Origin: Lodderomyces elongisporus
Taxonomy: Eukaryota; Ascomycota; Pichiomycetes; Serinales; Debaryomycetaceae
Direction: 5' to 3'
Length of the DNA: 64,000 bases
Assembly: GCF_030384665.1 (NCBI RefSeq)
Contig: NC_083677.1
Location: forward strand, 248,001 to 312,000
Shown: positions 23,524-47,673 of the stretch, in pieces
How positions within the stretch are numbered: the first letter of the stretch is position 1
Layout of the letters: each line of letters begins with the position of its first letter
Position numbers and translations under genes: made by a program
Notes under the pieces: generated by a model
Database searches by the model: none
What the model saw: only the letters and a program-made list of their open reading frames with translations
What the model was told of the DNA's origin: nothing

Positions 23524-25890
23524 ATGAGTGAAATCAACAACTTTGATCAGCAAAAGAAACAAAAGATCAAAAAGCTTGATGAATCAGTGATAAACAAGAT
23601 TGCTGCAGGTGAAATCATTATCCAGCCAGCCAATGCTTTGAAGGAGATGTTGGAGAACTCAATAGATGCAAAGGCAACTAATATCGAGATTGTGGTCAAG
23701 GAAGGAGGCTTGAAACTACTTCAAATTACTGATAATGGTCAAGGTATTGACAAGAGCGATCTACATTTACTATGTGAAAGATTTGCCACTTCCAAACTAA
23801 CGAAATTTGAGGATCTTGAACTGATTGCAACATACGGATTTCGAGGCGAGGCTCTAAGCAGTATATCGCACATTTCACGACTATCGGTTGTTTCTAAAAC
23901 CAGGGACTCGAATCTTGCATACAAGGCATACTACATCAATGGCAAAATGTGCGCTTCTAATTTTAAACCGGCAACGGGTAATAACAAAATTGAGCCTAAA
24001 CCTATCGCTGGTCGAGATGGTACTCAAATTACCGTTGAGGATCTTTTTTATAACTTGCCATCAAGATTCAAAGGTTTGAAGTCGAAAAGCGACGAGTTTG
24101 CCAAGATTTTAGATATTGTTGGCCGGTATGCCATACACACAGGTCACGTAGGATTCAGCTGCAAGAAATATGGCGATCCATTGCATCAGTTGAACACAAG
24201 AGCCAATTTGTCAATAAAGGAAAGAGTGCGTATTGTTTATGGATCGAACATTGCAAATGAGTTGTTGGAATTTAATTTTGAACCCACAGAAGAAGAAGAT
24301 GGAGGAAACATGGCGTACAAGGTGCCCGACTTGGGTATTCTACGGGTCAAAGGTACATTAACCAATGCTAATTTCAACAACAAGAAAAAAATACAATCAG
24401 TGATTTTTATCAACCATAGATTGGTGTCGTGTGATCCGTTAAGAAGAGCTATGAATTCGGTCTTCCAATTCTTTTTGCCAAAGGGAAGCCATCCTTTTTT
24501 CTATATTAGTTTGGAGATAAAGCCTGAAAATTTAGACGTTAATGTTCATCCTACTAAGAGGGAAGTACGATTTTTGAATGAAGATGAGATTATTGATTTA
24601 ATAGTTGCAAGAGTTCACAAGATTTTGTCTAGTGTTGACACGTCAAGAAAGTTTAAAACACAAACTATTGTGACTAGAAGGAATAATGAGTTGGAGGAGG
24701 AGAAGCTTTCGTTTGGCGATGGTTCGCAAAGTGAAAGTAACAGTCAAGGTGCTAGTCAAGGTGCAAGCCAAGGTGCTAGTCAAAATGCAAGTCAAAATGC
24801 AAGTCAATATACGAATCTGGGCTTTGTCCAAACACAAGAAGCACCCCCTTTAAAGAAATATAGACAGGAAAATAAAATGGTCCGTGTTGATGCATCCCAA
24901 TCAAAGATCAATCCATTTTTGTCGCAACGAGACACTAATAGAAGTTTTTCGGAATTTATTAAAGATGAGTTTGATTACAAAGATGAAACGACGACGCTTG
25001 TTGATCAAGAAGATACAGATTTGTTTGTTAAGGATTTTGATGAAGGATTGACTGATACGCAGAGGATTAACCAAGAGTCGCAGCTCGCGAACAACTCGCA
25101 GCAACTGCTTAATTCACAGCGGACTCAGGTTGAAGTCAACTTGGAGTCCATTAAGGGTCTCAAGAGTGATTTGACTGAGTTTATTGATAAGCAGTTGACC
25201 AATGTGTTTAACCATGCGGTGTTTGTTGGGATCATTGACCCACTAAAGAGACTATGTTGTTTTCAATACGATGTCAAATTGTTTATTTGCGATTATGCTG
25301 CCGTGTTGTTGGAATTTTACTATCAAATTAGTCTCCATGAATTTTGCAATTATGGTGAAATAGAATTTGATGAACCTTTGTCTTTAGATGACTTGTTAGA
25401 GCCATTATACACAATGGAGGGCATGGAAAATGTTTTACTTGCCAAGGAGAAAGTGATAGAAACTATAATCAACATGAAGGATATGTTTCAAGAGTATTTC
25501 CGAATAATAATTGACGATGAAAATAGGCTTGTTGCGATACCCATGATTATGAAGAAAATACAGCCTGATTTTAAAAAGTTGCCGTTTTTCATTTACAGAT
25601 TGGGCACCAAGATAAATTACGATAATGAAAAGGAGTGTTTACAAGGTATCTTGAGACAAATTGCATTGCTATATCTACCAGAACCATTTAGTGATGAAGA
25701 TAATAACGAAGCACGCGAAAAGAGGGATGTTCTTGAACAAGAGTTGGAGAATATATTGTTTCCGGAGTTGAAGAAACAGTTTTTGGCTACAAGAAATCTT
25801 ACGCGCGATGTTGTGCAGATTGCTGATTTGCCTGGGCTATGTCGCATACAGGGCATCTACGTCGTGATTAAGCTCGCTACCAACCTATAA
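23524..25890 (+). CDS. MLH1: DNA mismatch repair protein Mlh1, 3' end disrupted by a retrotransposon
   Basis: 788 residues as it stands: 772 native plus 16 encoded by the LTR (from TGT 25840 to TAA 25888-25890). Mlh1 pairs with Pms1 or Mlh3 in mismatch repair and meiotic crossover. The GHKL ATPase motifs are present: ENSIDAKA near 44-51, DNGQGI near 71-76, TSKL near 89 and YGFRGEAL at 104-111. The C-terminal dimerisation domain covers about 545-772. A Ser/Gln/Gly/Ala 12-bp repeat lies near 408-430. The native ending, YRVFERC, has been displaced to 31586-31609. Codon 100 is CTG and aligns with Ser in human MLH1. The truncated protein may fold and dimerise but lacks the FERC tail that completes the Pms1 endonuclease site, so loss of repair function is inferred. 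Confidence 0.95.
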   Translation: MSEINNFDQQKKQKIKKLDESVINKIAAGEIIIQPANALKEMLENSIDAKATNIEIVVKEGGLKLLQITDNGQGIDKSDLHLLCERFATSKLTKFEDLELIATYGFRGEALSSISHISRLSVVSKTRDSNLAYKAYYINGKMCASNFKPATGNNKIEPKPIAGRDGTQITVEDLFYNLPSRFKGLKSKSDEFAKILDIVGRYAIHTGHVGFSCKKYGDPLHQLNTRANLSIKERVRIVYGSNIANELLEFNFEPTEEEDGGNMAYKVPDLGILRVKGTLTNANFNNKKKIQSVIFINHRLVSCDPLRRAMNSVFQFFLPKGSHPFFYISLEIKPENLDVNVHPTKREVRFLNEDEIIDLIVARVHKILSSVDTSRKFKTQTIVTRRNNELEEEKLSFGDGSQSESNSQGASQGASQGASQNASQNASQYTNLGFVQTQEAPPLKKYRQENKMVRVDASQSKINPFLSQRDTNRSFSEFIKDEFDYKDETTTLVDQEDTDLFVKDFDEGLTDTQRINQESQLANNSQQLLNSQRTQVEVNLESIKGLKSDLTEFIDKQLTNVFNHAVFVGIIDPLKRLCCFQYDVKLFICDYAAVLLEFYYQISLHEFCNYGEIEFDEPLSLDDLLEPLYTMEGMENVLLAKEKVIETIINMKDMFQEYFRIIIDDENRLVAIPMIMKKIQPDFKKLPFFIYRLGTKINYDNEKECLQGILRQIALLYLPEPFSDEDNNEAREKRDVLEQELENILFPELKKQFLATRNLTRDVVQIADLPGLCRIQGIYVVIKLATNL
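25835..25839 (+). other. Left target-site duplication GGCTA
   Basis: GGCTA immediately before the left LTR equals GGCTA at 31581-31585 immediately after the right LTR. A 5-bp duplication is the size expected of Ty3/gypsy integrase. Confidence 0.95.
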
Positions 25891-26195
25891 GTAGCTCCCT
25901 TACTAACCTCTTGTAGAACGCCTGAAACGCCTTAGCATCTTGCCGCCTCGAGTATGTCCGCCTCTGGGCATCAGACTAGCGAACTGCAGATACGATAGCC
26001 AATTAGAGAGCTGATATTTCTCGAGATAAGCTTTGTGCTACGTCTTCTGAGGTTGTCGAGAAGAGCTTAAATAGCCACCAAGATCCCAGTTAGATAGACC
26101 TCCTCTGTACTTACCTCCTTAGATAGTTAATACATTCGAACCCCTATCAACCTTTAGTTTGACACTTACGCTATTTCCCGGATCAAGATGTCACA
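25840..26195 (+). repeat. 5' LTR of element 2 (356 bp)
   Basis: TGTCGCATAC...GATGTCACA, with TG...CA ends. Compared base by base with 31225-31580 I find no difference. Its first 51 bases are read in frame as the aberrant end of MLH1 (TAA at 25888-25890), and its last eight bases contain the ATG of the polyprotein. After it comes TGGAGGTCC..., with the TGG expected of a tRNA primer-binding site; I could not name the tRNA. Confidence 0.96.
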
Positions 26196-29100
26196 TGGAG
26201 GTCCTAACCAGATGGTTAAAACCCGAGCTACTCAAGTTGCGATACGTTTTCAACGTAACGTAGCTTTCACAGCCTTCATTGCCACTCTCTCCGGTCTCGT
26301 TGGATCCCTTCTTTACCAACACGACCCAGAACACTTTGCAGTCGTTCGCCAATGGTCACTATTCATTTTCACGACTTTACAAATCTGGAAACAACAACTC
26401 ATTGTTCCAGACTGGTGGTATAACTCCACCTACACCACACAAGCTGTGGTTACTTCTCTTAGGCTTCCTTGGTACAGGACTCACTACACCACCATTACGT
26501 ACCAATACACCACTCGTTCCTTTCAGGAATTCCACCTTGACGATTTGTTAGGCACTGAACTTGACACCTTCATCAAAAGTGTCAAACTTGACCCTGCTGC
26601 TCCTCACTGGCTCATCACCGCCTTCAATATTATCAAGATTACGATTACCTACTGTTCCCTGTTGTTCCACATACTTTCCGGATGGGCGTTACCTATCATT
26701 ACGTTCATCTTACTTACCACTTCCATTACCTTTTTCAGAATGGTTTGGTCAATCCTTACTTGGCCAATTAGAGCATTCCAACCCAAACGGGTCACTAATC
26801 ACAATACGACCCCAACAGCCAATACACCTGTCACGTCAATACGTACTGAAATCACCCACGGGTCCAACTCACCGACTCGCATAGTAATCGAAACTCTCCC
26901 CGAGTTAGTCGCGCAAATACACGGAAGAGCTCAAATCCCAGCAGGCAGACAACCCTGGCATGCACGCTTGATCACCTTCTGTTGGATGCTCATTCGTTGG
27001 ATCTTCCTATTCCCGTTTCAGCTAACTCGGTGGCTTCGTGAGTCTCGTGCACGAGCACTCACTAGAGACTACAGAGATTATCAACTTGTTGACCTTGACT
27101 TCATTTCCCGTGAAGCTCTTGCTAATTCACTTTTTCCACAAATTCGGTTGGTTCGCTTCGACCCTAAGCGGTTATACGGTGCCATCATCAGAGCAAGCGA
27201 GAACCGGAACTGGAACGACCGTAACACATTCACATCTCGCAGAAGTAAATTCCTTAGGATGACTACCTTATGGCAATTCCAAACTGAGTTCATAAAAATG
27301 GGCCTCTCTAATGATGTCTACAACACCCTCAGTGAACAAGCTAGACAAACAGCTCTTGAGTTCAAAACTCCAGTTCTGGATTATCAGGAAACCTTAGACC
27401 TTCTCCGCGAGCTTGATCAAATCCCCTACCTTCATAAACATTTCAATTCAGTTATGCCAGCCTTACTTAGAACAGCTTTCTCCAAGCCAGCAATACACAA
27501 TGTTATACTGACACTCTACGACACCACACAATCCTACTGGACGTTAATGAGTTTACTTGATTCAAATTGGTATGACCTTGCTGTTAATGTTCCTGAGAGA
27601 CCTTCCACTAGGCCGTACAACAAACACCACTTACGAAATGGTCGCCCTCGACTCGTCACACCCAACATTGTGTCAACTACGACAGAGACAACCACTCCTA
27701 GCAGTATTATTCCAAAGATGCACAGTACAAATTACTCACAGACGGGCTATGTTGCTGCTGCCTTAGCTAACCAAGCCAAACACTCCTTCTTTGTGCCCAT
27801 CCTTTTGCAATCCGCTGACGTTCCAGAGACAATGGGCTACCTTGACCAAGGATCAACATTCTCCTTCATCAGCCCAGCACTTGTGTCTTCCCTTGGACTT
27901 GTCACCTCACCACGAGCACAACGTATTAATCTCGCAGCTTTCGGTCAAGGCGCCCGCACAGTCACTGCTCCTACCGTCGACGTCGACTTCAACATCAAAG
28001 ACCACGATACACCATTTAGCTTCACCTTCGTTGTTCACGAAACCAGGATCGCTCCTATTCTTCTTGGAGCGGATTGGTGGGAAAAGTACGAACTTCTTTG
28101 TGTTGTTGGTAAGAGATTAGAGATAAATGGTCAAACCGTCCCCACCATTCAAGGGGAGGAACACCAACTCATCTTCAGTACCGACGATTTAGACCCACCA
28201 CCTGATCCTACACCACCACTTTTTGCGCATTTGATTCAACAGTATAAGAGTAAAGCGCCCACGCTCACACTCCCTCCGGCGCGCAGTACTGATTACGTCA
28301 TTAACATTCGAAAAGATGCGATTATTAAGCCCAACAGACCACACCCGAAGTACGCAGTTAATGCTGAACAAGCCATCATCAACAACACTCGCGAGCTTCT
28401 CCAACAAGGGTTAATTATCCCATCGAAAGCACGTCACTACTCCATCCCTTCAGCGGTCCCGAAAAAGAATGGTACATACCGTATCGTATATGATTTTCGA
28501 GCAGTCAATGCATTGACGATCCCAATAAATTCCACTTGGAACAATTTTCGCGAATTATTGCCTGGCATCACCGGCGCCACCTGCTTCAGCACCATTGACT
28601 TGTCTAGTGCCTATCACCAATTGCGCATCGCGCCACTGACTCAACCTTGGACTGCCTTTTGGACCCCAATTGGTGTCTTTGAATTCTTGGTTCTTCCCTT
28701 TGGACTCACCGACGCACCTGAGGTTTTTGGCCGCTACATGAAGCAACTTTTTATGGACATGCCTTTTGTCCGAACCTACCTTGATGACATTCTTGTTTTC
28801 TCCGAAAACGAGAAAGTCCACTATAGTCATCTAAAGAAGATCTTTGAACGACTTGTTCAACATCAACACACCATCAATTGGGAAAAATCTGTTTTTGCGC
28901 AACCTGAAATTCAATGGGTCGGTCACCTTCTTACCAAAGACGGGGTCCTGCCTACTGACACCACCAAAGGCCAAATTCAGCTGATTGCAATTCCCAGAGA
29001 CAAAGATGAAGTCCGTCAATTCCTCGGACACGTAGGTTACATTCAAGATCACATTGCCAATTATAGCCATCGCGCTGCCCCGCTCACGGATCTTTTAACC

Positions 29101-31218
29101 AAACACACTCAATTCAATTGGTCACAGAAATGCCAATCTGCCTTTAACGACCTCAAAGCTGCTGTTTTAGAAACCACCAGTCTTCAATTTTTTGACCCCA
29201 AACAACCCATTGCGGTATTCACCGACGCTTCCCACATAGCTATGGCTGCCATTCTCATGCAACCCGACCAAGCTGGTGGCGGAAATTGGCGCCCCATCGA
29301 ATACCGGTCCCGCAAATTCACTGGGGGGGAAGTTAACTGGGACATTTTCTTGAAAGAATTTGCTGCTGTCAAAATGGCCTTTGAAAAGTTCCGCCTTTAC
29401 CTCGAAGGCACCCACTTCTCACTTTTTGTGGATCAGCTTCCCATCAAACAAGTTTTCGAAGCCTTTGGTCGTGGTAAAATACATGGGGATGCTCGTATCC
29501 AACGCTGGATGTCCAAGCTCCTTTGTTACAACTTTGACGTTTTCCACATCAACGGCAACGAGAACTTTATTGCGGATCACATGAGCCGCAACCCAGCACA
29601 CTTTCAGTCATCTACCGCCATTTCCATCATTGGCGCTGTCAACGTACTTCTGGTTCCAGATGAATGGTTCCACCAATTCACTCCGGCCTACGCGGACGAT
29701 CCATTTTTTGCCAACGTGTACGACCTTCTCCAACAAGGACAAACCAATAATGAGGCTACTCAAAATTACTCTCTTGACACAACAACCACGTTGCTTTACT
29801 ACCATGACAAACTCTGCATCCCACATGCTTTGCTTCAACAGTTTCTCATGACCCAACACGACTCCCTTGAGGGTGGTCACTGCGGCATCACTAACTTCTT
29901 CAACAAAGTAGACCCTTACTACTATTTTCCCAAGATGCGTCTCGTAATCCGACAATACGTCGACCTGTGTCTACAATGCCAACGCCACAAACCTCCCAAC
30001 CGGGCACCCAATGGTTTGCTCCAGTCCTTCCCTGATCCAAAGGGAAGATGGACCGACATCAACGTTGACATCATTAGTGGTTACCCCGAAGTTGAATTCA
30101 ACGGACGTTTGGTAAATGCGATTTTAACAATCGTATGTAGATTCTCCCGCAGAGTCCATTTTTACCCCATATCCACGAAGTTCTCAGCTCTGGACTTCAT
30201 CCATGTTTTTCAACACCTTTACATGCCTCTTCATGGCATACCCACCATCATCACCACCGATCGTGGTACTCAATTTACTAGCGAACTTTTCCAAAACTAC
30301 ATGAATTCCCTCAAAATCACTTCCAATATCGCAGTAACCAGCCACCAACAAAGCAATGGTCTCGCAGAGACCAAGAACAAACAAATCGAGCGCTACTTAC
30401 GCCTCTATATTGACCAGAACACCGAATGGCCACAACTTTTACTGATTGGAGAATATGTTATGAACTCCACCCCTACGTCCGCCCTTGACCACAAGTCCCC
30501 ATTTGAGATGGACCTTTCCTACATCCCTCGCTCCCCGGCCACTATTCTTTTTCCTACCCACTCGGGTGCACAGGACAATGCTGCTATTGACATCACTGAG
30601 AAATTGGAACGTCTCACCACAGCTGCTCGCCACGCTCACAAAGCAACGTTCCAACGCCTAAAGGACAACTACGACAGACACCATCGTGACATCGAGTTCA
30701 ACGTTGGTGACGCTGTTCTAGTTCGTACCCCTTTGCTTAAGTCTCACCCTGATGCTGCCAACCATGGCCAACGCCGAAAGTTTTTGTCTGAATTCACTGG
30801 CCCATTCACTATAGCTGCAAAATCTGACAATGGTGTCAACTACACTTTGGAAATGCCTCAATCCTACAAAGGTCATTCTGATTTCCACGTCTCCCAGCTT
30901 AGACTCCTCAAGTCCCTCCCACCTGATGCTATCACCGCCCCTCAACCCGAAGTGGGCTTCAAAGTCTACAAGGACGGATCTCAACTTGTCGAAATCGACG
31001 CCATCGTGGACCACAAACCCCGGAAAACAGGTTTCTTACTCCTTTGTCGTCACACACCTACCACCAAACACCCCGATGGCGAATGCGTCTACTACTCCGC
31101 CTCATCACTTAGACAAACCGCTCGCGATCTTTTATTAGCTTATGCGTGCGAAAAGTCCTTGCCTGCCCTTGTGGCACCCAAGGACCGCCATTTAGTAACT
31201 CCTCCTCAAACAACCTAG
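26188..31218 (+). CDS. Gag-Pol polyprotein of element 2, with membrane segments at its N-terminus
   Basis: 1676 residues in one frame. Hydrophobic segments lie at about 25-44, 141-163, 166-190 and 261-279, which is unusual for Gag. A helix-rich, possibly capsid-like region follows (about 300-460), with no CCHC knuckle anywhere. The aspartic protease has DQGS at Asp553 and LLGADWW near 628. RT has YLDD at 864-867, RNase H Asp near 1013, integrase zinc region from His1231, and Asp1294, Asp1358, Glu1394 with 35 residues between the last two. A C-terminal block (SDFHVSQLRLLK, near 1565) and the region after it resemble the Gag-Pol tails with a chromodomain-like fold; that is uncertain. The first ATG lies within the LTR; Met9 at 26212 is an alternative start. 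Confidence 0.93.
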   Translation: MSHGGPNQMVKTRATQVAIRFQRNVAFTAFIATLSGLVGSLLYQHDPEHFAVVRQWSLFIFTTLQIWKQQLIVPDWWYNSTYTTQAVVTSLRLPWYRTHYTTITYQYTTRSFQEFHLDDLLGTELDTFIKSVKLDPAAPHWLITAFNIIKITITYCSLLFHILSGWALPIITFILLTTSITFFRMVWSILTWPIRAFQPKRVTNHNTTPTANTPVTSIRTEITHGSNSPTRIVIETLPELVAQIHGRAQIPAGRQPWHARLITFCWMLIRWIFLFPFQLTRWLRESRARALTRDYRDYQLVDLDFISREALANSLFPQIRLVRFDPKRLYGAIIRASENRNWNDRNTFTSRRSKFLRMTTLWQFQTEFIKMGLSNDVYNTLSEQARQTALEFKTPVLDYQETLDLLRELDQIPYLHKHFNSVMPALLRTAFSKPAIHNVILTLYDTTQSYWTLMSLLDSNWYDLAVNVPERPSTRPYNKHHLRNGRPRLVTPNIVSTTTETTTPSSIIPKMHSTNYSQTGYVAAALANQAKHSFFVPILLQSADVPETMGYLDQGSTFSFISPALVSSLGLVTSPRAQRINLAAFGQGARTVTAPTVDVDFNIKDHDTPFSFTFVVHETRIAPILLGADWWEKYELLCVVGKRLEINGQTVPTIQGEEHQLIFSTDDLDPPPDPTPPLFAHLIQQYKSKAPTLTLPPARSTDYVINIRKDAIIKPNRPHPKYAVNAEQAIINNTRELLQQGLIIPSKARHYSIPSAVPKKNGTYRIVYDFRAVNALTIPINSTWNNFRELLPGITGATCFSTIDLSSAYHQLRIAPLTQPWTAFWTPIGVFEFLVLPFGLTDAPEVFGRYMKQLFMDMPFVRTYLDDILVFSENEKVHYSHLKKIFERLVQHQHTINWEKSVFAQPEIQWVGHLLTKDGVLPTDTTKGQIQLIAIPRDKDEVRQFLGHVGYIQDHIANYSHRAAPLTDLLTKHTQFNWSQKCQSAFNDLKAAVLETTSLQFFDPKQPIAVFTDASHIAMAAILMQPDQAGGGNWRPIEYRSRKFTGGEVNWDIFLKEFAAVKMAFEKFRLYLEGTHFSLFVDQLPIKQVFEAFGRGKIHGDARIQRWMSKLLCYNFDVFHINGNENFIADHMSRNPAHFQSSTAISIIGAVNVLLVPDEWFHQFTPAYADDPFFANVYDLLQQGQTNNEATQNYSLDTTTTLLYYHDKLCIPHALLQQFLMTQHDSLEGGHCGITNFFNKVDPYYYFPKMRLVIRQYVDLCLQCQRHKPPNRAPNGLLQSFPDPKGRWTDINVDIISGYPEVEFNGRLVNAILTIVCRFSRRVHFYPISTKFSALDFIHVFQHLYMPLHGIPTIITTDRGTQFTSELFQNYMNSLKITSNIAVTSHQQSNGLAETKNKQIERYLRLYIDQNTEWPQLLLIGEYVMNSTPTSALDHKSPFEMDLSYIPRSPATILFPTHSGAQDNAAIDITEKLERLTTAARHAHKATFQRLKDNYDRHHRDIEFNVGDAVLVRTPLLKSHPDAANHGQRRKFLSEFTGPFTIAAKSDNGVNYTLEMPQSYKGHSDFHVSQLRLLKSLPPDAITAPQPEVGFKVYKDGSQLVEIDAIVDHKPRKTGFLLLCRHTPTTKHPDGECVYYSASSLRQTARDLLLAYACEKSLPALVAPKDRHLVTPPQTT

Positions 31219-31224
31219 GGGGGA
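31217..31224 (+). other. Polypurine tract of element 2
   Basis: A-G6-A directly before the 3' LTR. It overlaps the polyprotein stop codon TAG (31216-31218), so coding capacity runs right up to the tract. Confidence 0.85.
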
Positions 31225-31580
31225 TGTCGCATACAGGGCATCTACGTCGTGATTAAGCTCGCTACCAACCTATAAGTAGCTCCCTTACTAACCTCTTGTA
31301 GAACGCCTGAAACGCCTTAGCATCTTGCCGCCTCGAGTATGTCCGCCTCTGGGCATCAGACTAGCGAACTGCAGATACGATAGCCAATTAGAGAGCTGAT
31401 ATTTCTCGAGATAAGCTTTGTGCTACGTCTTCTGAGGTTGTCGAGAAGAGCTTAAATAGCCACCAAGATCCCAGTTAGATAGACCTCCTCTGTACTTACC
31501 TCCTTAGATAGTTAATACATTCGAACCCCTATCAACCTTTAGTTTGACACTTACGCTATTTCCCGGATCAAGATGTCACA
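31225..31580 (+). repeat. 3' LTR of element 2 (356 bp)
   Basis: Same length and, by eye, same sequence as the 5' LTR, and followed directly by the target duplication. Since LTRs are made identical at insertion, lack of differences indicates recent integration. Confidence 0.97.
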
Positions 31581-31585
31581 GGCTA
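31581..31585 (+). other. Right target-site duplication GGCTA
   Basis: Matches 25835-25839. Removing one copy together with the element restores the reading frame of MLH1 through to its stop. Confidence 0.95.
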
Positions 31586-31609
31586 TATAGAGTTTTTGAA
31601 AGGTGTTGA
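31586..31609 (+). pseudogene. MLH1: Orphaned last codons of MLH1
   Basis: TAT AGA GTT TTT GAA AGG TGT TGA encodes YRVFERC and a stop, in the frame that continues from PGL at 25831-25839. FERC is the conserved C-terminus of eukaryotic MLH1 proteins. It has no start codon and is cut off from the gene by 5.7 kb of retrotransposon. Confidence 0.93.
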
Positions 31610-31971: not shown

Positions 31972-31985
31972 GGGGGGGGGGGGGG
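31972..31985 (+). repeat. G14 homopolymer
   Basis: Fourteen G in a row, a length that slips easily during replication and that mismatch repair normally polices. It lies 390 bp from the disrupted end of MLH1. Confidence 0.9.
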
Positions 31986-41085: not shown

Positions 41086-44000
41086 TATTTAAGTTCTGGG
41101 GTTGTGTGTGTATAGTAAGTGTAGTTAGTGGTGGTGTGTACAATGTATAATTTGGAGTAAAAAGGGTGGGGGTGATAGGATTATACCGAGGACTGAATGC
41201 TTCTTTAACACTTGATAAAGTAAATAATAAAATGAATATTATTATTATTAATTGCAAATAATAATGTGGATTTTGGACCCTATATAGATGGATAATGTGG
41301 TTTATGTTGTGGTTGTTGTTTTCTTCTTTCTTATTTTATATATATATGTATATATGATGAACTTGGTGTGAAGAAGTGAATAATATTTCTTGATAAAATA
41401 ATATTACAAAAAAAAATGAAAATTAAAATGAAGAAAGGGAACAAAAATAATAATTTATGGTGGATCCTGGATATATATAATAGAATTGTGTTTGGTCTAA
41501 TTTCTCTTTGACCTTGTGTGTAAGTGTGTGTGTGTGTGGGAAGGTGTGTGTGGGTATTTGAGTGTATGATGTTGCTGCTCAAGGATGTATTGAGTCAGTG
41601 GTAAACACAAAAAAGAGAAAAAAGATTTGGGTCAATGGGTGAAATCAGTGATAAAAGTGAAATGTAAAAGGAAAATGTGTGAAATTATAAGGCAGGAAAA
41701 AGGGAAGGGATTGTCTTGGATGTATATATATATAGGTGTGTGTTTGTATGTGTGTGTATGTGTCAGCATGTGTCTGTGCCTGCCTGTACCTGAAAAAAAG
41801 AAACAAGAAACAAGAGACAAGAAAAAATAAAATATAAAAATAATAAGGAAAAAAAAAACAACAACAAGAAGAAGAAGGAAAATAAAGTGGATTTATAGAT
41901 TATTATTTATTTTTTGATATAAAAATAAACAATAAGAAGTAGGGCAAAGTAAAGTAAAGTAAAGTATAATAAGAGAAGAGAAGAGAAGAGAGAGAAAATA
42001 AAAGAGAGATACGATGATGTAATCGGTATTTCATATATACATTGTAAGAAGATAATGTCTGTGAGTACGATAGGTAGAGGTAGTGTGTGTGTGTACAAGT
42101 GTCTCTGTCTGATATACTTACGAAGCAGATCTGTAAAACAATACAAATCAGAACAAAACAATACAAAAAAAGAGGGGGGGGAGGAGGGTTACACTACTTG
42201 TTATATTGCTGTTCTGGTGTCTGGTGTCTGATGTCTGTTGTTGTATCCTTTACTAATTATTATTAATATAATATTTTATTTTATTTGTATTTTTTATTAA
42301 AGTCTCTTTTCTTAAAAGGAAAAAATGTGAATAAATGATGGCTGAGTAAATCCAATGCCCTATATTATAAAATAAAATTGTTTTTAGCACATGGTGCATA
42401 TTTGTTATTTATCTGTATAGCTGCGTAAATGCAATAATGCAGAGGTGCAAATTACGAGACACAGAAAAGAACCAGAATCGAAAAGAAAAGAAAAGAGAGA
42501 AAAAACGACAACCACCACAAAAACAGGAGAACAGAGAGAATGAGCAATATTACCAAGAAACGAAGATGACAAGAAATTAACCTCTTTCTTTTTCTCTGTC
42601 TTTCGTATAAAGGGACTCACACGTACAAGTACAAGTACAAGTATGTACTCAAGGAGAGAGAGAGAGAGGAGAAAGAAGACTAAGAAACTTAAGAACAAGT
42701 AACATTTGAGGAGTCCAAAAGCCGAGGAATGCAACCCCAAAGCATAGCCACAAACAAAAAAACGTATATATACACTATTCACTAGTTTAGTACTAATAGG
42801 AAAAAGAGAAATAGTGGAAAAAGAAAAAGAAAATGGATTGTGAAGAGAGGGGAATCCATTGCAACCTGTGGCTTGTAAATACTATTTATCAAGTACAAAC
42901 AACATCAACATCAACATCACGAACAACAACAAGCACTAAAGAAACATCTTACAGAGAACTCTTCGTATTCTTTACTCTGTTTTTTTTTTGTTGTTTAATG
43001 TCAATATTATAGCTCTTTATTTCTCGGATATAGTGTCTGCTTGCCTCTTTCTTATATAAAAATAGAGTGAAAAAAAATTATATATATAAATTATATATAA
43101 TATATAAATTATATAAATTTATTAGGAAGGGCAAATGCTGCTTGGTTACGAATGACCCTTTGCTTATGGTAAATCCTCGGGTCATAAAAAAATAATATTT
43201 TAAGAAATATAAAAAATATAGAGACTATTTTATATTTAATTATTAACACTCTGTCTTTTTATTTTAAACATAGGAACATTACGATCAAAGTAAAATATAA
43301 ATTATAAAAAATAATTCAGTATGTAGAGTAGTGTACTATCTACAAATATAATACGGATACAGGGTTTTTTATTTTATATCTTATATATATACATATATAT
43401 ATGTATATAACAAATGGAGTCAAGTGGCAAAGGTTATTGAGTAATGTCCCAAGTGTCTCCTTATTGGTGGTTTTAATTTCCTTAATTTTATAGTATTCCA
43501 ATATGACAAACAAAATATACAACAGCTTTTCAAACACTTACTAAACCTGGTCATCTTTGTTGAGTTTATAAATTCTAAGCCATCATTTTTTTAAATATTA
43601 CATGGCTCAGCTTGTTTGAAAATGGAATTTTAAATTCTAATAATACTGCTTTTTCATCATCATCATCATCACCTTCTTCTTCTTTTTCTTCTTTTTCATT
43701 AACTCTATTGCAGATAATAATCATTGTCGCATTGTAAAATCAATACATTTGCAGAAACACTAAAAGTGGTAAACAAAGCAACCAGTAAAATGTTGACTAA
43801 AATAAAGAAAAACAACAACAACAACAAGAGTTATAGAGGATAAGAACAAATAAAGACTTGCAATATACAAGATGGTTCAAAGTGGAGGTTATTATTGAAT
43901 TTGTGTCTCTTCTTACTTTCCATTCTGCTTTTTACCCCCTCTTTATTTTTTTGGTTGAGAATGGAGAGAGAGATAGATGAGGTAAATCAAGTTGAACTTC

Positions 44001-44257
44001 AATCAACAAGGCTTTTATTCTTCATTTGTTCTGTTTTGTTCTAGGACTATATAAACAACAGAGTACTCATTATATGAATTGGTTAAATATAAAAAAAGAA
44101 GAGCCATACACTTGTTCTAGTTGAATATTCTGTATTCTGTTTTGTTGTTGTTGTTGTTTTTCTTTCTTGACAAAATTTCACAAGATCCTTTGTGTGTATA
44201 CATGATGTATCTGTATCATCTAAAATATTTGTATTTCTGCCCCCCCCTTCTCACACT

Positions 44258-44282
44258 CCCCCCCCCCCCCAAAAAAAAAAAA
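44258..44282 (+). repeat. C13-A12 homopolymer pair
   Basis: Thirteen C followed directly by twelve A, shortly after a C8 run (44240-44247). Highly slippage-prone sequence. Confidence 0.85.
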
Positions 44283-45454
44283 TTATTTATTAGCTATTAT
44301 ATTTATATTTAAATTTAAATTTAAATTTATTATTTATTTTATTTATTATTTGCTTTTACTTTACACACGGGGAAGGATCCGATAGCATTTCTATTTTGGT
44401 TCTTTTTTTTGTATTCTTAAAATAAAAGGATGCATCTTGCAGTAGTAAGCCTATTGTTGACAATTTCACTATAAATGAGAATTGTGAAATTAGCTTATAA
44501 TACGAAAAAAAGAAGAGAGAGAGAGAGAGAAATATATATATAAAGATATAGAGGAGACTTATCGGCTCGGATAAATGGATGCACACTCATACGTAATAGA
44601 ACTAATAATATTAAAAGCAAAAAAAAAAAAAAAGAGAAAAAAAAAAAAAACTTAAGATAACTAACCATTGCCTTATTGAAATATATATATATATAGATGT
44701 AGCTACCACCATAGAGTATCGTAAAAACTAAAAACAAAAAAAAGGACGCAAGATGCATAATGCACAGTGATGTCACCGCCGTTGGAAGATGAAGGGAAGA
44801 GGAGAAATGAACAATAATATTAACAATAATATAAACAATAACATAGTGTATAAAACAAATCTGAAACGAAGTTACAAAAGCATCTTAGCGTATCCTTATA
44901 GTAATGTTGAAGAAGAAGAAGAAGAATAAGGATAGAGCAATCAACCTATAAGGAGAATTCCAAAAAAGAAAGAAATACATTTTATAAAGCAAGCAGAATA
45001 CCGTTGGCTTTTCTTTTCCTTAAATATATTAAGCAACATGACAGCAACAAGTACGAGTATACGATTGGTAAAAAATAAGAAAGATAAAAAAAAAACACTC
45101 TTGTTGAGCAAAACAAAACAAGCAGAAAAGGAAGGGAAAGAAATAGACAAGATTACATCACTCTATAGTTCCCAACAAATTGTTAAATATTATACATTAC
45201 AAATAAAAAAGAAAATTAGCAATAGGATTATTATTATTCTGGGAGGTAAAGAGAGAGAGAGAGAGAGAGATGCAGAGTAGAAAGTGGTTGGATACGTAAT
45301 AAGTCATCTCTCTCTTACCATCAACAACAACATATCTCTAGAAATAGTAATGTAAAGACTCAGGAAAATACAATAAATACAATAACAGCATCTAAAGTAA
45401 ACTAAACTATTTTAAAAACTTGCAGTTTAGTTTCAGGATGGACAATAGTCGATG

Positions 45455-45520
45455 CCCAAACTGAAACTGCAATTGAAACTGAAACTGAAACTGGAACTGA
45501 AACTAGAACTGGAACTGGTC
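45455..45520 (+). repeat. AAACTG-type hexamer array
   Basis: About ten imperfect hexamers of the form (A/G)AACTG with a few variants (CAATTG, AACTAG). A degenerate minisatellite within the gene-free region. Confidence 0.75.
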
Positions 45521-46689
45521 CATTCAGAAATATCCTATTGTTGTTTCAAACTTTACTTTAATGTTTCTAGTTACGACTCAAGCAATCGGCACAAGACACC
45601 GTAAAAACAAACAAAAATAAAAATAAAGACAGATATATGTATACATATATATATATGTATATATGACACGGTAACTATAAACTATTTATGAGAAAAAAAA
45701 AAACAACAATTTTGTGTGCTGCTTAAAACAGATGCTATTGTTCAAAGAGAAAAGAACCAAAAGAACAAATTGAATGAAAACAATAATCGACTTCGCCTCT
45801 ATAATGTTCTTCCTGTTCTTCCTTGTCTTTTAGTCCACCAGGTCTAGACCTTTTGATTCTCTGTTCCTCTATTATTATTTATATACATGTGTGTATAGAT
45901 ATAATTCTCTGTTGTCTGTTTGTCCCTATTCTTTTATCTTGGCTTTGAGGCCAGATTCTCGGAAAGATCATAGTCGTCTATTTAGTATACTTTTTTTCAT
46001 TTTTATATTTTTGTCTTTGTTTTTGTGTTTGGATCTTTAGCAATAACAAGGCAGTAGAAAGTGGAACAGAAAAAAAAAAAAGGAAGAATATAAAAAATAA
46101 AAAAAAAAGTGTATACGGAACACTCATAACCAAATTGACACTAACTCCGCAATATACGGATAATACTTTATATGATGGCGAGTACCTGCCGTCTCGCTTT
46201 TATATTATATATATATATATATATATATTTAGTGATTTGGTTCTATTGTTTCTATTTTTTCTTTCCTTCCACTCCCCTCTTTCTCTCTCTTTTTTTTTTT
46301 ATTCGCTACTATTGTTTTACACTTTAATTTTAAGAAATAGACCAAAGGATATTTAACAGTGATGTTAAAAAAAAGGAAAAAAAAAACAAGGGTGCTATAT
46401 CCGAAAATATATAATAGACTGAAAAAAAAAAACTCCTTGGTAAGAATACCTGAAAACTCATTTAGTCACATCTCTTCTCTTTTTTAAAGCCATCAACTCC
46501 AAACTCCGAGCTTACCTCAAATGGTATATTCTGGAATCCATATATGACATCATAGCTTACACATACTTTCCACTTGGGAATTACGATGATGATGATGATG
46601 ATGCTGCTCTGAAACAAGAGTTATAATATTTTATAATCTATAAAAAAAATATTAAATCAAAGGTAGTGCAAGAGTAGAGAAAAAAGCAA

Positions 46690-46724
46690 GACAGACAGAC
46701 AGACAGACAGAAAGACAGACAGAC
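46690..46724 (+). repeat. (ACAG)n tetranucleotide microsatellite
   Basis: About eight ACAG units with one interruption (AAAG). Confidence 0.85.
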
Positions 46725-47673
46725 AAAAAATAATACATCGTAAAACAAAATGTCTGCGTCATAGAAAGAAAAGAAAAAACAAAAGAACATTGCTCGCAAT
46801 TCTTCGGCATTTGAAAAAACAACAACATATTTGACCATTATACCTGTAAAGAGGGATGGAAGAATGAATAGATGGAAAAGAAAAAAAAGACTTGCAAAAG
46901 AAATATTTTTGAAAGAGCACTATGACCAGCACAATCAACCTCTTTTAAAGTCAAACTTATAAGTATGGATTAATATGAGATTTTCATATTATAAACGTAG
47001 CTAAACTTTATAATACTTTACGTGAAAAACAAGCCAAAATTTATACAAATCAAGTAAAGTATGAAAGTAAAGTAATATATATATATATATATATATGTAT
47101 ATACTTATATCTAATTTTCAAATTAGAATATGAACTCCAAGAGACATCTACTGTTGTAAACCACAGAAACCAAAACATACAACTTCAATTACTCACCTCA
47201 TCTCTAAGATAAACTCTTAAATCAATAGTCAATATAAACAACTATTGGACTCTCTACTATTCCGCCTTTAATTTAGTTTTTTCTTTCTTTCTAACTCACT
47301 TTCTTTCCTTCTAACATTATCAAAATGATTAGTTGTCCCATTTTTGCAACCAAACACACCAATATCCCAATTAGGTAATCTACGATGCAATTCACTATAC
47401 ACATTGTATTTATCTTATTTCTTTTTTAATTTTTCTTTCTTTCTTTTTTATTTTTCCGTTAAAACTTTTAAGCCCATATATATTCACATATGTGTATACT
47501 ACTACATATTAAGCACCATGCTGTAAACCATTATATCCATCACTCTCCATCGCATCCACATCAAACCAACTAAACTTATAGACATACACATATATATATA
47601 TACATACACATATATTTATCTTGATTTCACTCATTTTCAACACACAAGAAGAACAAAAAAAACATAGTACAGT

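What the first reader, a model, noticed from the sequence alone, without database searches (positions are those of the whole stretch)
25835..31609. Retrotransposon insertion severs the conserved FERC tail of MLH1
Reading across both junctions, MLH1 runs in frame to PGL at 25839, then into the LTR for 16 codons to TAA. On the far side of the element, after the GGCTA duplication, the missing codons and stop (YRVFERC) are intact at 31586-31609. In yeast MutL-alpha the Mlh1 C-terminus, including its terminal Cys, contributes to the Pms1 endonuclease metal site, so this allele is predicted to be defective in mismatch repair. A genome reference strain with a transposon-made mutator allele would matter for interpreting its mutation spectrum, microsatellites and evolvability. 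Whether the allele is homozygous, and whether it is functional, cannot be told here.
Basis: partly seen in the sequence, partly recalled or inferred. Interest (0 to 1): 0.88.

Follow-up and report, generated by a model that had tools for sequence, protein, structure and literature searches.

The report
Jumping gene truncates yeast repair gene
In the reference strain of the yeast Lodderomyces elongisporus, a young mobile element sits inside the DNA-repair gene MLH1 and swaps its strictly conserved last seven amino acids for foreign ones, so the strain may carry a natural high-mutation-rate allele, although the mutation rate and the second gene copy have not been tested.

Summary
A 5,741-bp Ty3/gypsy-type element (25840-31580; identical 356-bp LTRs; GGCTA duplication) lies near the end of MLH1. 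The ORF reads ...LPGL, then 16 LTR codons and TAA; the displaced YRVFERC-stop is intact at 31586-31609. Assembly statistics match L. elongisporus NRRL YB-4239 (GCA_030384665.1, HiFi). No second MLH1 was found in that assembly. A conspecific-like protein (P0003) has the uninterrupted tail, and 120 of 120 listed homologues end in FERC, so the insertion is derived and apparently not fixed. PMS1 and MLH3 have open frames. By published S. cerevisiae genetics the allele should be null for Mlh1-Pms1 endonuclease-dependent repair: mlh1-E767stp, a smaller loss, is null, and C-terminal fusions to Mlh1 fail. Human MLH1 data suggest a truncated tail still binds its partner, so a weak dominant-negative effect is possible. 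Zygosity in this diploid and any mutator phenotype are untested. It is a new example of a known kind, notable for sitting in a species' reference genome.

The parts
23524..25839 (+). Native MLH1 coding sequence, 772 codons, open under code 12
   Evidence: Pfam Mlh1_C 6.5e-72, DNA_mis_repair, HATPase_c_3 (CTG read as Leu there)
25835..25839 (.). Left copy of the 5-bp target-site duplication GGCTA
25840..26195 (+). 5' LTR, 356 bp
25840..25890 (+). Chimeric MLH1 tail: 16 LTR-encoded codons and TAA stop
26188..31218 (+). Single uninterrupted gag-pol ORF, 1676 aa; its ATG lies inside the 5' LTR
   Evidence: RVT_1, RT_RNaseH, Integrase_H2C2, rve, SH3_Tf2-1
26196..26209 (+). Primer-binding-site-like sequence TGGAGGTCCTAACC directly after the 5' LTR (tRNA not identified)
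   Evidence: sequence
31215..31224 (+). Polypurine-tract-like sequence CTAGGGGGGA directly before the 3' LTR
   Evidence: sequence
31225..31580 (+). 3' LTR, 356 bp, identical to the 5' LTR
31581..31585 (.). Right copy of the target-site duplication GGCTA
31586..31609 (+). Orphaned last seven MLH1 codons (YRVFERC) and TGA stop
   Evidence: the same tail in P0003 aligns with YKVFERC of the yeast Mlh1 chains 4fmn_A, 4e4w_A and 6rmn_A

Best explanation
A recently transposed Ty3/gypsy LTR element inserted between codons 772 and 773 of MLH1 in the L. elongisporus type-strain lineage (shown). MLH1 is then translated as a 788-residue chimera with a native ATPase domain and almost all of the C-terminal domain, but with YRVFERC replaced by 16 LTR-encoded residues (shown in DNA; expression inferred). 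The chimera probably still folds and pairs with Pms1 and Mlh3, but lacks the FER residues that complete the Pms1 endonuclease site and carries an extension that this C-terminus does not tolerate. Mismatches would be recognised but not nicked and processed: a null or near-null allele for Mlh1-Pms1 repair, possibly weakly dominant-negative if the other allele is intact (inferred from S. cerevisiae and human MLH1 work).
For: Exact junctions, identical LTRs and target-site duplication. 120 of 120 listed homologues end in FERC (120 listed of 7,989 hits). At the lost positions Y, F, E, R and C are each 120 of 120. The conspecific-like P0003 has the intact tail. Alignment of P0003 to solved yeast Mlh1 chains places the break before YKVFERC. 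Passages of PMC3814310: mlh1-E767stp is null, nicking-defective, accumulates Mlh1-Pms1 foci and is weakly dominant; C-terminal fusions to Mlh1 are non-functional. PMC12064032 passages: stops at human MLH1 745-756 increase abundance; the authors hypothesise stabilisation and stronger PMS2 binding. PMS1 frame and DQHASDEKFNFE / CPHGRP motifs intact; MLH3 likewise. No 5' splice site among the ten hexamers tested at 25500-25890, and no GT-AG removal restores the native tail (0 of 286 that end in FERC).
Against: No mutation rate, transcript or protein was measured. A heterozygous intact allele cannot be excluded, because only primary contigs are held. The rest of MLH1 shows no decay: the frame is open, and P0003 differs from it before the tail by only five substitutions and one 4-residue gap (three further S/L differences there are the reading of CTG). 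That fits a young or heterozygous insertion, but would also fit residual function. One non-consensus GT-AG combination (25841 to 31592) would leave FERC after LPGLF; the donor GTCGCA and the 5.75-kb length make it unlikely.
Confidence: 0.8

Rival explanations
1. The insertion is heterozygous in the diploid type strain: one allele interrupted, one intact. Repair is then nearly normal, with at most a weak dominant-negative effect and easy loss of heterozygosity to a mutator state.
For: The species is diploid (PMC10586162; PMC10294660) and isolates show heterozygosity and loss of heterozygosity. hifiasm primary contigs show one haplotype. Partner genes and the MLH1 body are undecayed.
Against: None direct. 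Only one MLH1 locus is in the assembly, which does not distinguish zygosity.
Confidence: 0.35
2. The chimeric Mlh1 is functional, or function is kept through suppressors or altered splicing, so the strain repairs mismatches normally.
For: In S. cerevisiae loss of the terminal Cys alone is tolerated in PMC3814310. The first three foreign residues (CRI) partly resemble YRV. The MLH1 body is intact. PMC5614558 (passage) reports that suppressors have arisen in the rare natural incompatible MLH1-PMS1 combinations.
Against: mlh1-E767stp, a smaller loss, is null, and C-terminal fusions to Mlh1 are non-functional. F, E, R and C are invariant in 120 of 120 listed homologues. No donor among the hexamers tested.
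Confidence: 0.12
3. Assembly artefact: the element was misjoined into MLH1.
For: Nearly identical sequence exists elsewhere on the same chromosome (C5:492914-498654).
Against: A perfect 5-bp duplication abuts exact LTR ends; the two copies differ at 33 internal sites and have different duplications, GGCTA and CTTAC. The assembly uses HiFi reads longer than 20 kb, which can span 5.7 kb.
Confidence: 0.02

Closest known systems
S. cerevisiae mlh1-E767stp (Smith et al. 2013, PMC3814310, passages seen)
   Same: Loses the end of the FERC tail of Mlh1 while the rest stays intact; null for repair, nicking-defective, weakly dominant
   Different: Engineered stop removing three residues; here a natural insertion replaces seven residues with sixteen foreign ones in another species
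Natural MSH2-defective hypermutator fungi: Cryptococcus deuterogattii VGIIa-like (PMC5614558, passages), C. neoformans (PMC5449657) and MSH2 variants of Candida glabrata (PMC5603725), the last two seen as listing and start of abstract and as cited in PMC5614558
   Same: Natural mismatch-repair allele predicted or shown to raise mutation rate
   Different: Gene is MLH1, not MSH2; the cause is an LTR retrotransposon; here no phenotype has been measured
S. cerevisiae natural MLH1-PMS1 incompatibility (PMC2413424, listing and start of abstract)
   Same: Natural MLH1 variation altering mutation rate
   Different: There alleles act by epistasis (missense nature recalled); here the C-terminal active-site tail is removed
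Lineage-wide losses of mismatch-repair genes in powdery mildews (as told in PMC8875331, passage)
   Same: Natural loss of mismatch-repair capacity in fungi
   Different: Gene losses shared by whole lineages; here one insertion allele not shared by P0003
Single-ORF Ty3/gypsy elements of yeasts (e.g. Clavispora lusitaniae and Metschnikowia Gag-Pol)
   Same: RT/RNaseH about 50% identical, same pol domains listed
   Different: A different family at about 50% identity; no zinc-knuckle or aspartic-protease family matched by Pfam here

Membership tests
MLH1 orthologue | MutL-type ATPase domain plus Mlh1_C domain, best match to yeast MLH1s | tested here: met
   Mlh1_C 6.5e-72; named Candida MLH1s at 57-66% identity in the list
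MLH1 orthologue | Protein ends in FERC with no extension | tested here: not met
   this allele ends in a 16-residue LTR-coded tail; 120 of 120 listed homologues end in FERC
Mismatch-repair mutator allele | Raised mutation rate, above all homopolymer indels | not testable with these tools
   needs reads from several isolates or an assay
Mismatch-repair mutator allele | No second intact copy of the gene in the genome | tested here: inconclusive
   single locus in the assembly; second allele of the diploid not visible
Ty3/gypsy LTR retrotransposon | LTRs with TG...CA ends and a short target-site duplication | tested here: met
   356-bp identical LTRs, 5-bp duplication
Ty3/gypsy LTR retrotransposon | RT-RNaseH-integrase order in pol | tested here: met
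   RVT_1 757-913, RT_RNaseH 1003-1114, Integrase_H2C2 1211-1269, rve 1311-1378
Ty3/gypsy LTR retrotransposon | Retroviral-type aspartic protease and zinc-knuckle Gag | tested here: inconclusive
   no Pfam match at E 1e-3; a DQGS stretch that could be protease-like is visible

The most novel reading that the evidence does not exclude
The type and reference strain of L. elongisporus is homozygous for a retrotransposon-made mlh1 allele and is a natural hypermutator. Its chimeric Mlh1 also acts as a dominant-negative partner trap: it binds Pms1 (and Mlh3) but cannot complete the nuclease site, so even heterozygotes are affected, and reference-based variation in the species is measured against a mutator genome.
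Probability: 0.4. Interest if true: 0.65.

Novelty: new member of a known kind. Interest (0 to 1): 0.52.

Why it matters
PMC5614558 (passage) says few natural eukaryotic hypermutators have been identified; the fungal cases I saw there are mostly MSH2. A transposon-made MLH1 allele in the type strain used as the species reference would affect microsatellite and SNP-based comparisons of isolates, and is a natural test of the FERC-tail model of the composite Mlh1-Pms1 nuclease. It is also checkable from public reads. If the allele is heterozygous or suppressed, it is only an interesting polymorphism.

Tried and rejected
Second MLH1 copy: the weak Mlh1_C hit at C5:607238-607522 (22.4 bits, below the 25-bit cut-off) lies in a Q-rich low-complexity ORF; rejected.

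Splice rescue: enumerated GT-AG removals; none restores the native tail and no donor matched the ten hexamers tested; rejected as likely, not excluded.

Link to a published 'stop_lost' call in a DNA-repair gene (LELG_04316, PMC10294660): I considered that it might be this chimeric stop. The 19 LTR matches all carry TAA or TAG at that codon, and of six locus tags searched (LELG_04313 to LELG_04318) only LELG_04316 occurs in the library, in that one paper. Not established, dropped.

Dating by LTR divergence: zero differences gives only a loose upper bound. A mutation-spectrum test needs DNA of a second genome of the species, which I did not have. Structure prediction of the chimera was not available.

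A direct statement of this insertion in print was not found: searches (Lodderomyces elongisporus + mismatch repair, 4 papers; + retrotransposon, 9 papers; + MLH1, 2 papers) list nothing whose title or start of abstract concerns it. Of these papers only PMC3248453 was opened, for passages. Supplements could not be searched.

Full report
Source. The window is C5:248001-312000 of a 16,086,460-bp, eight-contig genome. Total length, contig number, largest contig (C1, 3,597,007 bp) and N50 (2,328,861 bp, the length of C3) equal those published for GCA_030384665.1, L. elongisporus NRRL YB-4239, PacBio HiFi (PMC10586162, part 1 of 2 of the text read; contig lengths). CTG is read as Ser here (code 12); the Pfam scan read it as Leu. 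The publication calls the species diploid and says that the hifiasm primary contigs were deposited.

Anatomy. MLH1 starts at 23524. The frame is native to 25839 (...QIADLPGL), then enters the LTR for 16 codons and stops at TAA 25888-25890. The element spans 25840-31580: LTRs 25840-26195 and 31225-31580, identical over 356 bp; a primer-binding-like TGGAGGTCCTAACC after the first LTR; a single 1676-aa ORF (26188-31218) whose ATG lies inside the LTR; a CTAGGGGGGA tract before the second LTR; and GGCTA at both outer edges. Pfam finds reverse transcriptase, RNase H, integrase zinc-binding and core domains and a Tf2-1-like SH3 domain. Named yeast RT relatives are Gag-Pol proteins of Clavispora and Metschnikowia at 49-51% identity; the best hit, P0123 at 66%, is unnamed. 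After the right GGCTA come TAT AGA GTT TTT GAA AGG TGT TGA (YRVFERC stop) at 31586-31609. Joining the flanks in a script gives a 779-aa ORF.

Derived and recent. All 120 listed MLH1 homologues, of 7,989 hits among 7,993 scored candidates, end in FERC. The nearest, P0003 (775 aa, 98% identity, sources lgn and ena, unnamed), is L. elongisporus-like and ends LPGLYRVFERC. Apart from the tail and the reading of CTG it differs by five substitutions and one four-residue gap. At one of the five, residue 292, the reference has Ser where 112 of 119 other homologues have Pro and 4 have Ser. The interrupted allele is therefore the derived state, and at least one other sequence from the species or a close sibling lacks the insertion; n is 1. 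A second full-length copy at C5:492914-498654 has the same length, intact frame, CTTAC duplication, and 33 substitutions with no indels, all between the LTRs (24 synonymous and 9 non-synonymous codons). In six LTR pairs of this family (two full-length elements, four of a smaller element) I see one difference in about 2,430 aligned positions, with the LTR ends of the smaller element set by eye, so the family has been active lately. The remaining LTR matches, seven of 19 rows, are not part of these pairs and are 88-92% identical. This does not give a date.

Is there another MLH1? A 240-bp MLH1 probe finds one place. Mlh1_C finds this locus and one sub-threshold hit in a Q-rich ORF. HATPase_c_3 finds MLH1, PMS1 and two loci that I did not identify. 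The second allele of the diploid cannot be seen.

Partners. PMS1 (948 aa, C4) has DQHASDEKFNFE and CPHGRP; MLH3 (702 aa, C3) has DQHASDERVKIE and CAHGRP. That these are the endonuclease motifs, and the names of the two loci, are recalled or inferred from the MutL_C match. Six MutS_V loci and five XPG_I loci have no stops in the matched frames; I did not name each. The pathway is otherwise kept, as expected if the MLH1 break is young, heterozygous or harmless.

Mechanism. Alignment of P0003 to S. cerevisiae Mlh1 chains in PDB 4fmn, 4e4w and 6rmn puts the break just before YKVFERC (the species of these chains is recalled). In the passages of PMC3814310 that I saw, mlh1-E767stp fails to complement mlh1-delta, is defective in nicking, accumulates Mlh1-Pms1 foci and is weakly dominant; mlh1-C769A, -C769S and -C769stp complement fully; and C-terminal fusions to Mlh1 are non-functional. 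The authors add that earlier published results for C769S and C769stp differ from theirs, so the role of the Cys is disputed. The allele here loses seven residues, more than E767stp, and has an extension. It should therefore be null for endonuclease-dependent repair whatever the Cys does. In human MLH1, stop codons at 745-756 gave increased abundance, and the authors hypothesise stabilisation with stronger PMS2 binding (PMC12064032, passages). This suggests that the chimera may still occupy Pms1 and act as a weak dominant negative; the human assay had no foreign extension, so this is inference. Mlh1-Mlh3 would be affected in the same way (inference).

Rescue. In the 25500-25890 stretch no donor matches the ten hexamers tested. 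Of 286 mechanical GT-AG removals that still end in FERC, none restores the native tail; one non-consensus pair would leave LPGLFFERC.

What is known. Natural fungal mutators are documented for MSH2 in Cryptococcus (PMC5614558, passages), with a C. glabrata case seen in listing and abstract start (PMC5603725), and reviewed in PMC9241500 and PMC8875331 (passages). The latter also tells of powdery mildews that have lost many mismatch-repair genes. 'Transposon' does not occur in PMC9241500; its single occurrence in PMC8875331 is transposon sequencing in Vibrio. The Delhi outbreak study (PMC10294660, 12 of 17 passages shown) used this strain as reference and reports many DNA-repair variants relative to it; whether any relates to MLH1 I could not establish.

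Verdict. A loss-of-function reading is likely (0.8). That the strain itself is a mutator is open, mainly because zygosity is unknown.

Noticed in passing
G000 C1:3118396-3122878 (L029): A 4,483-bp element of this family with its two LTRs in inverted orientation, arms mostly 99-100% alike over about 1.3 kb (100-bp blocks; one at 93%, the last at 83%), flanked by a 5-bp repeat (ATATT): looks like an integrated palindromic reverse-transcription product or a rearranged copy.
   Followed up: partly
G000 C3:925010, C1:965476, C3:1319351, C2:1297880 (L015-L018, L020-L023): Four copies of a smaller LTR element (spacing of LTR starts about 2,635 bp, LTR about 430 bp, TGGAGG directly after the first LTR as here). 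Three of four LTR pairs are identical, the fourth has one mismatch near its end; each copy has a 5-bp repeat at its edges by eye. Perhaps a non-autonomous partner.
   Followed up: partly
window 25901-25916 and 31286-31301: The LTR holds TACTAAC followed directly by CTCTTGTAG, a yeast branch-point and acceptor-like arrangement, and a GTATGT (25952, 31337) further on. Coincidence or splicing of read-through transcripts not tested.
   Followed up: no
window 31972-31985: A run of 14 G shortly after the orphaned MLH1 tail; one of 48 mononucleotide runs (A/T of 9 or more, G/C of 7 or more) in the window. These are ready markers for a slippage test.
   Followed up: no
window 41086-47673: About 6.6 kb without an ATG ORF of 120 aa on the listing and rich in A/T runs; of 117 inverted-repeat pairs found there the 25 longest, those shown, have simple A/T-rich arms. 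Nature unknown.
   Followed up: partly
window 26188-27700 (Gag part): The N-terminal part of the element's ORF has several hydrophobic stretches by eye and no Pfam Gag or zinc-knuckle match.
   Followed up: no
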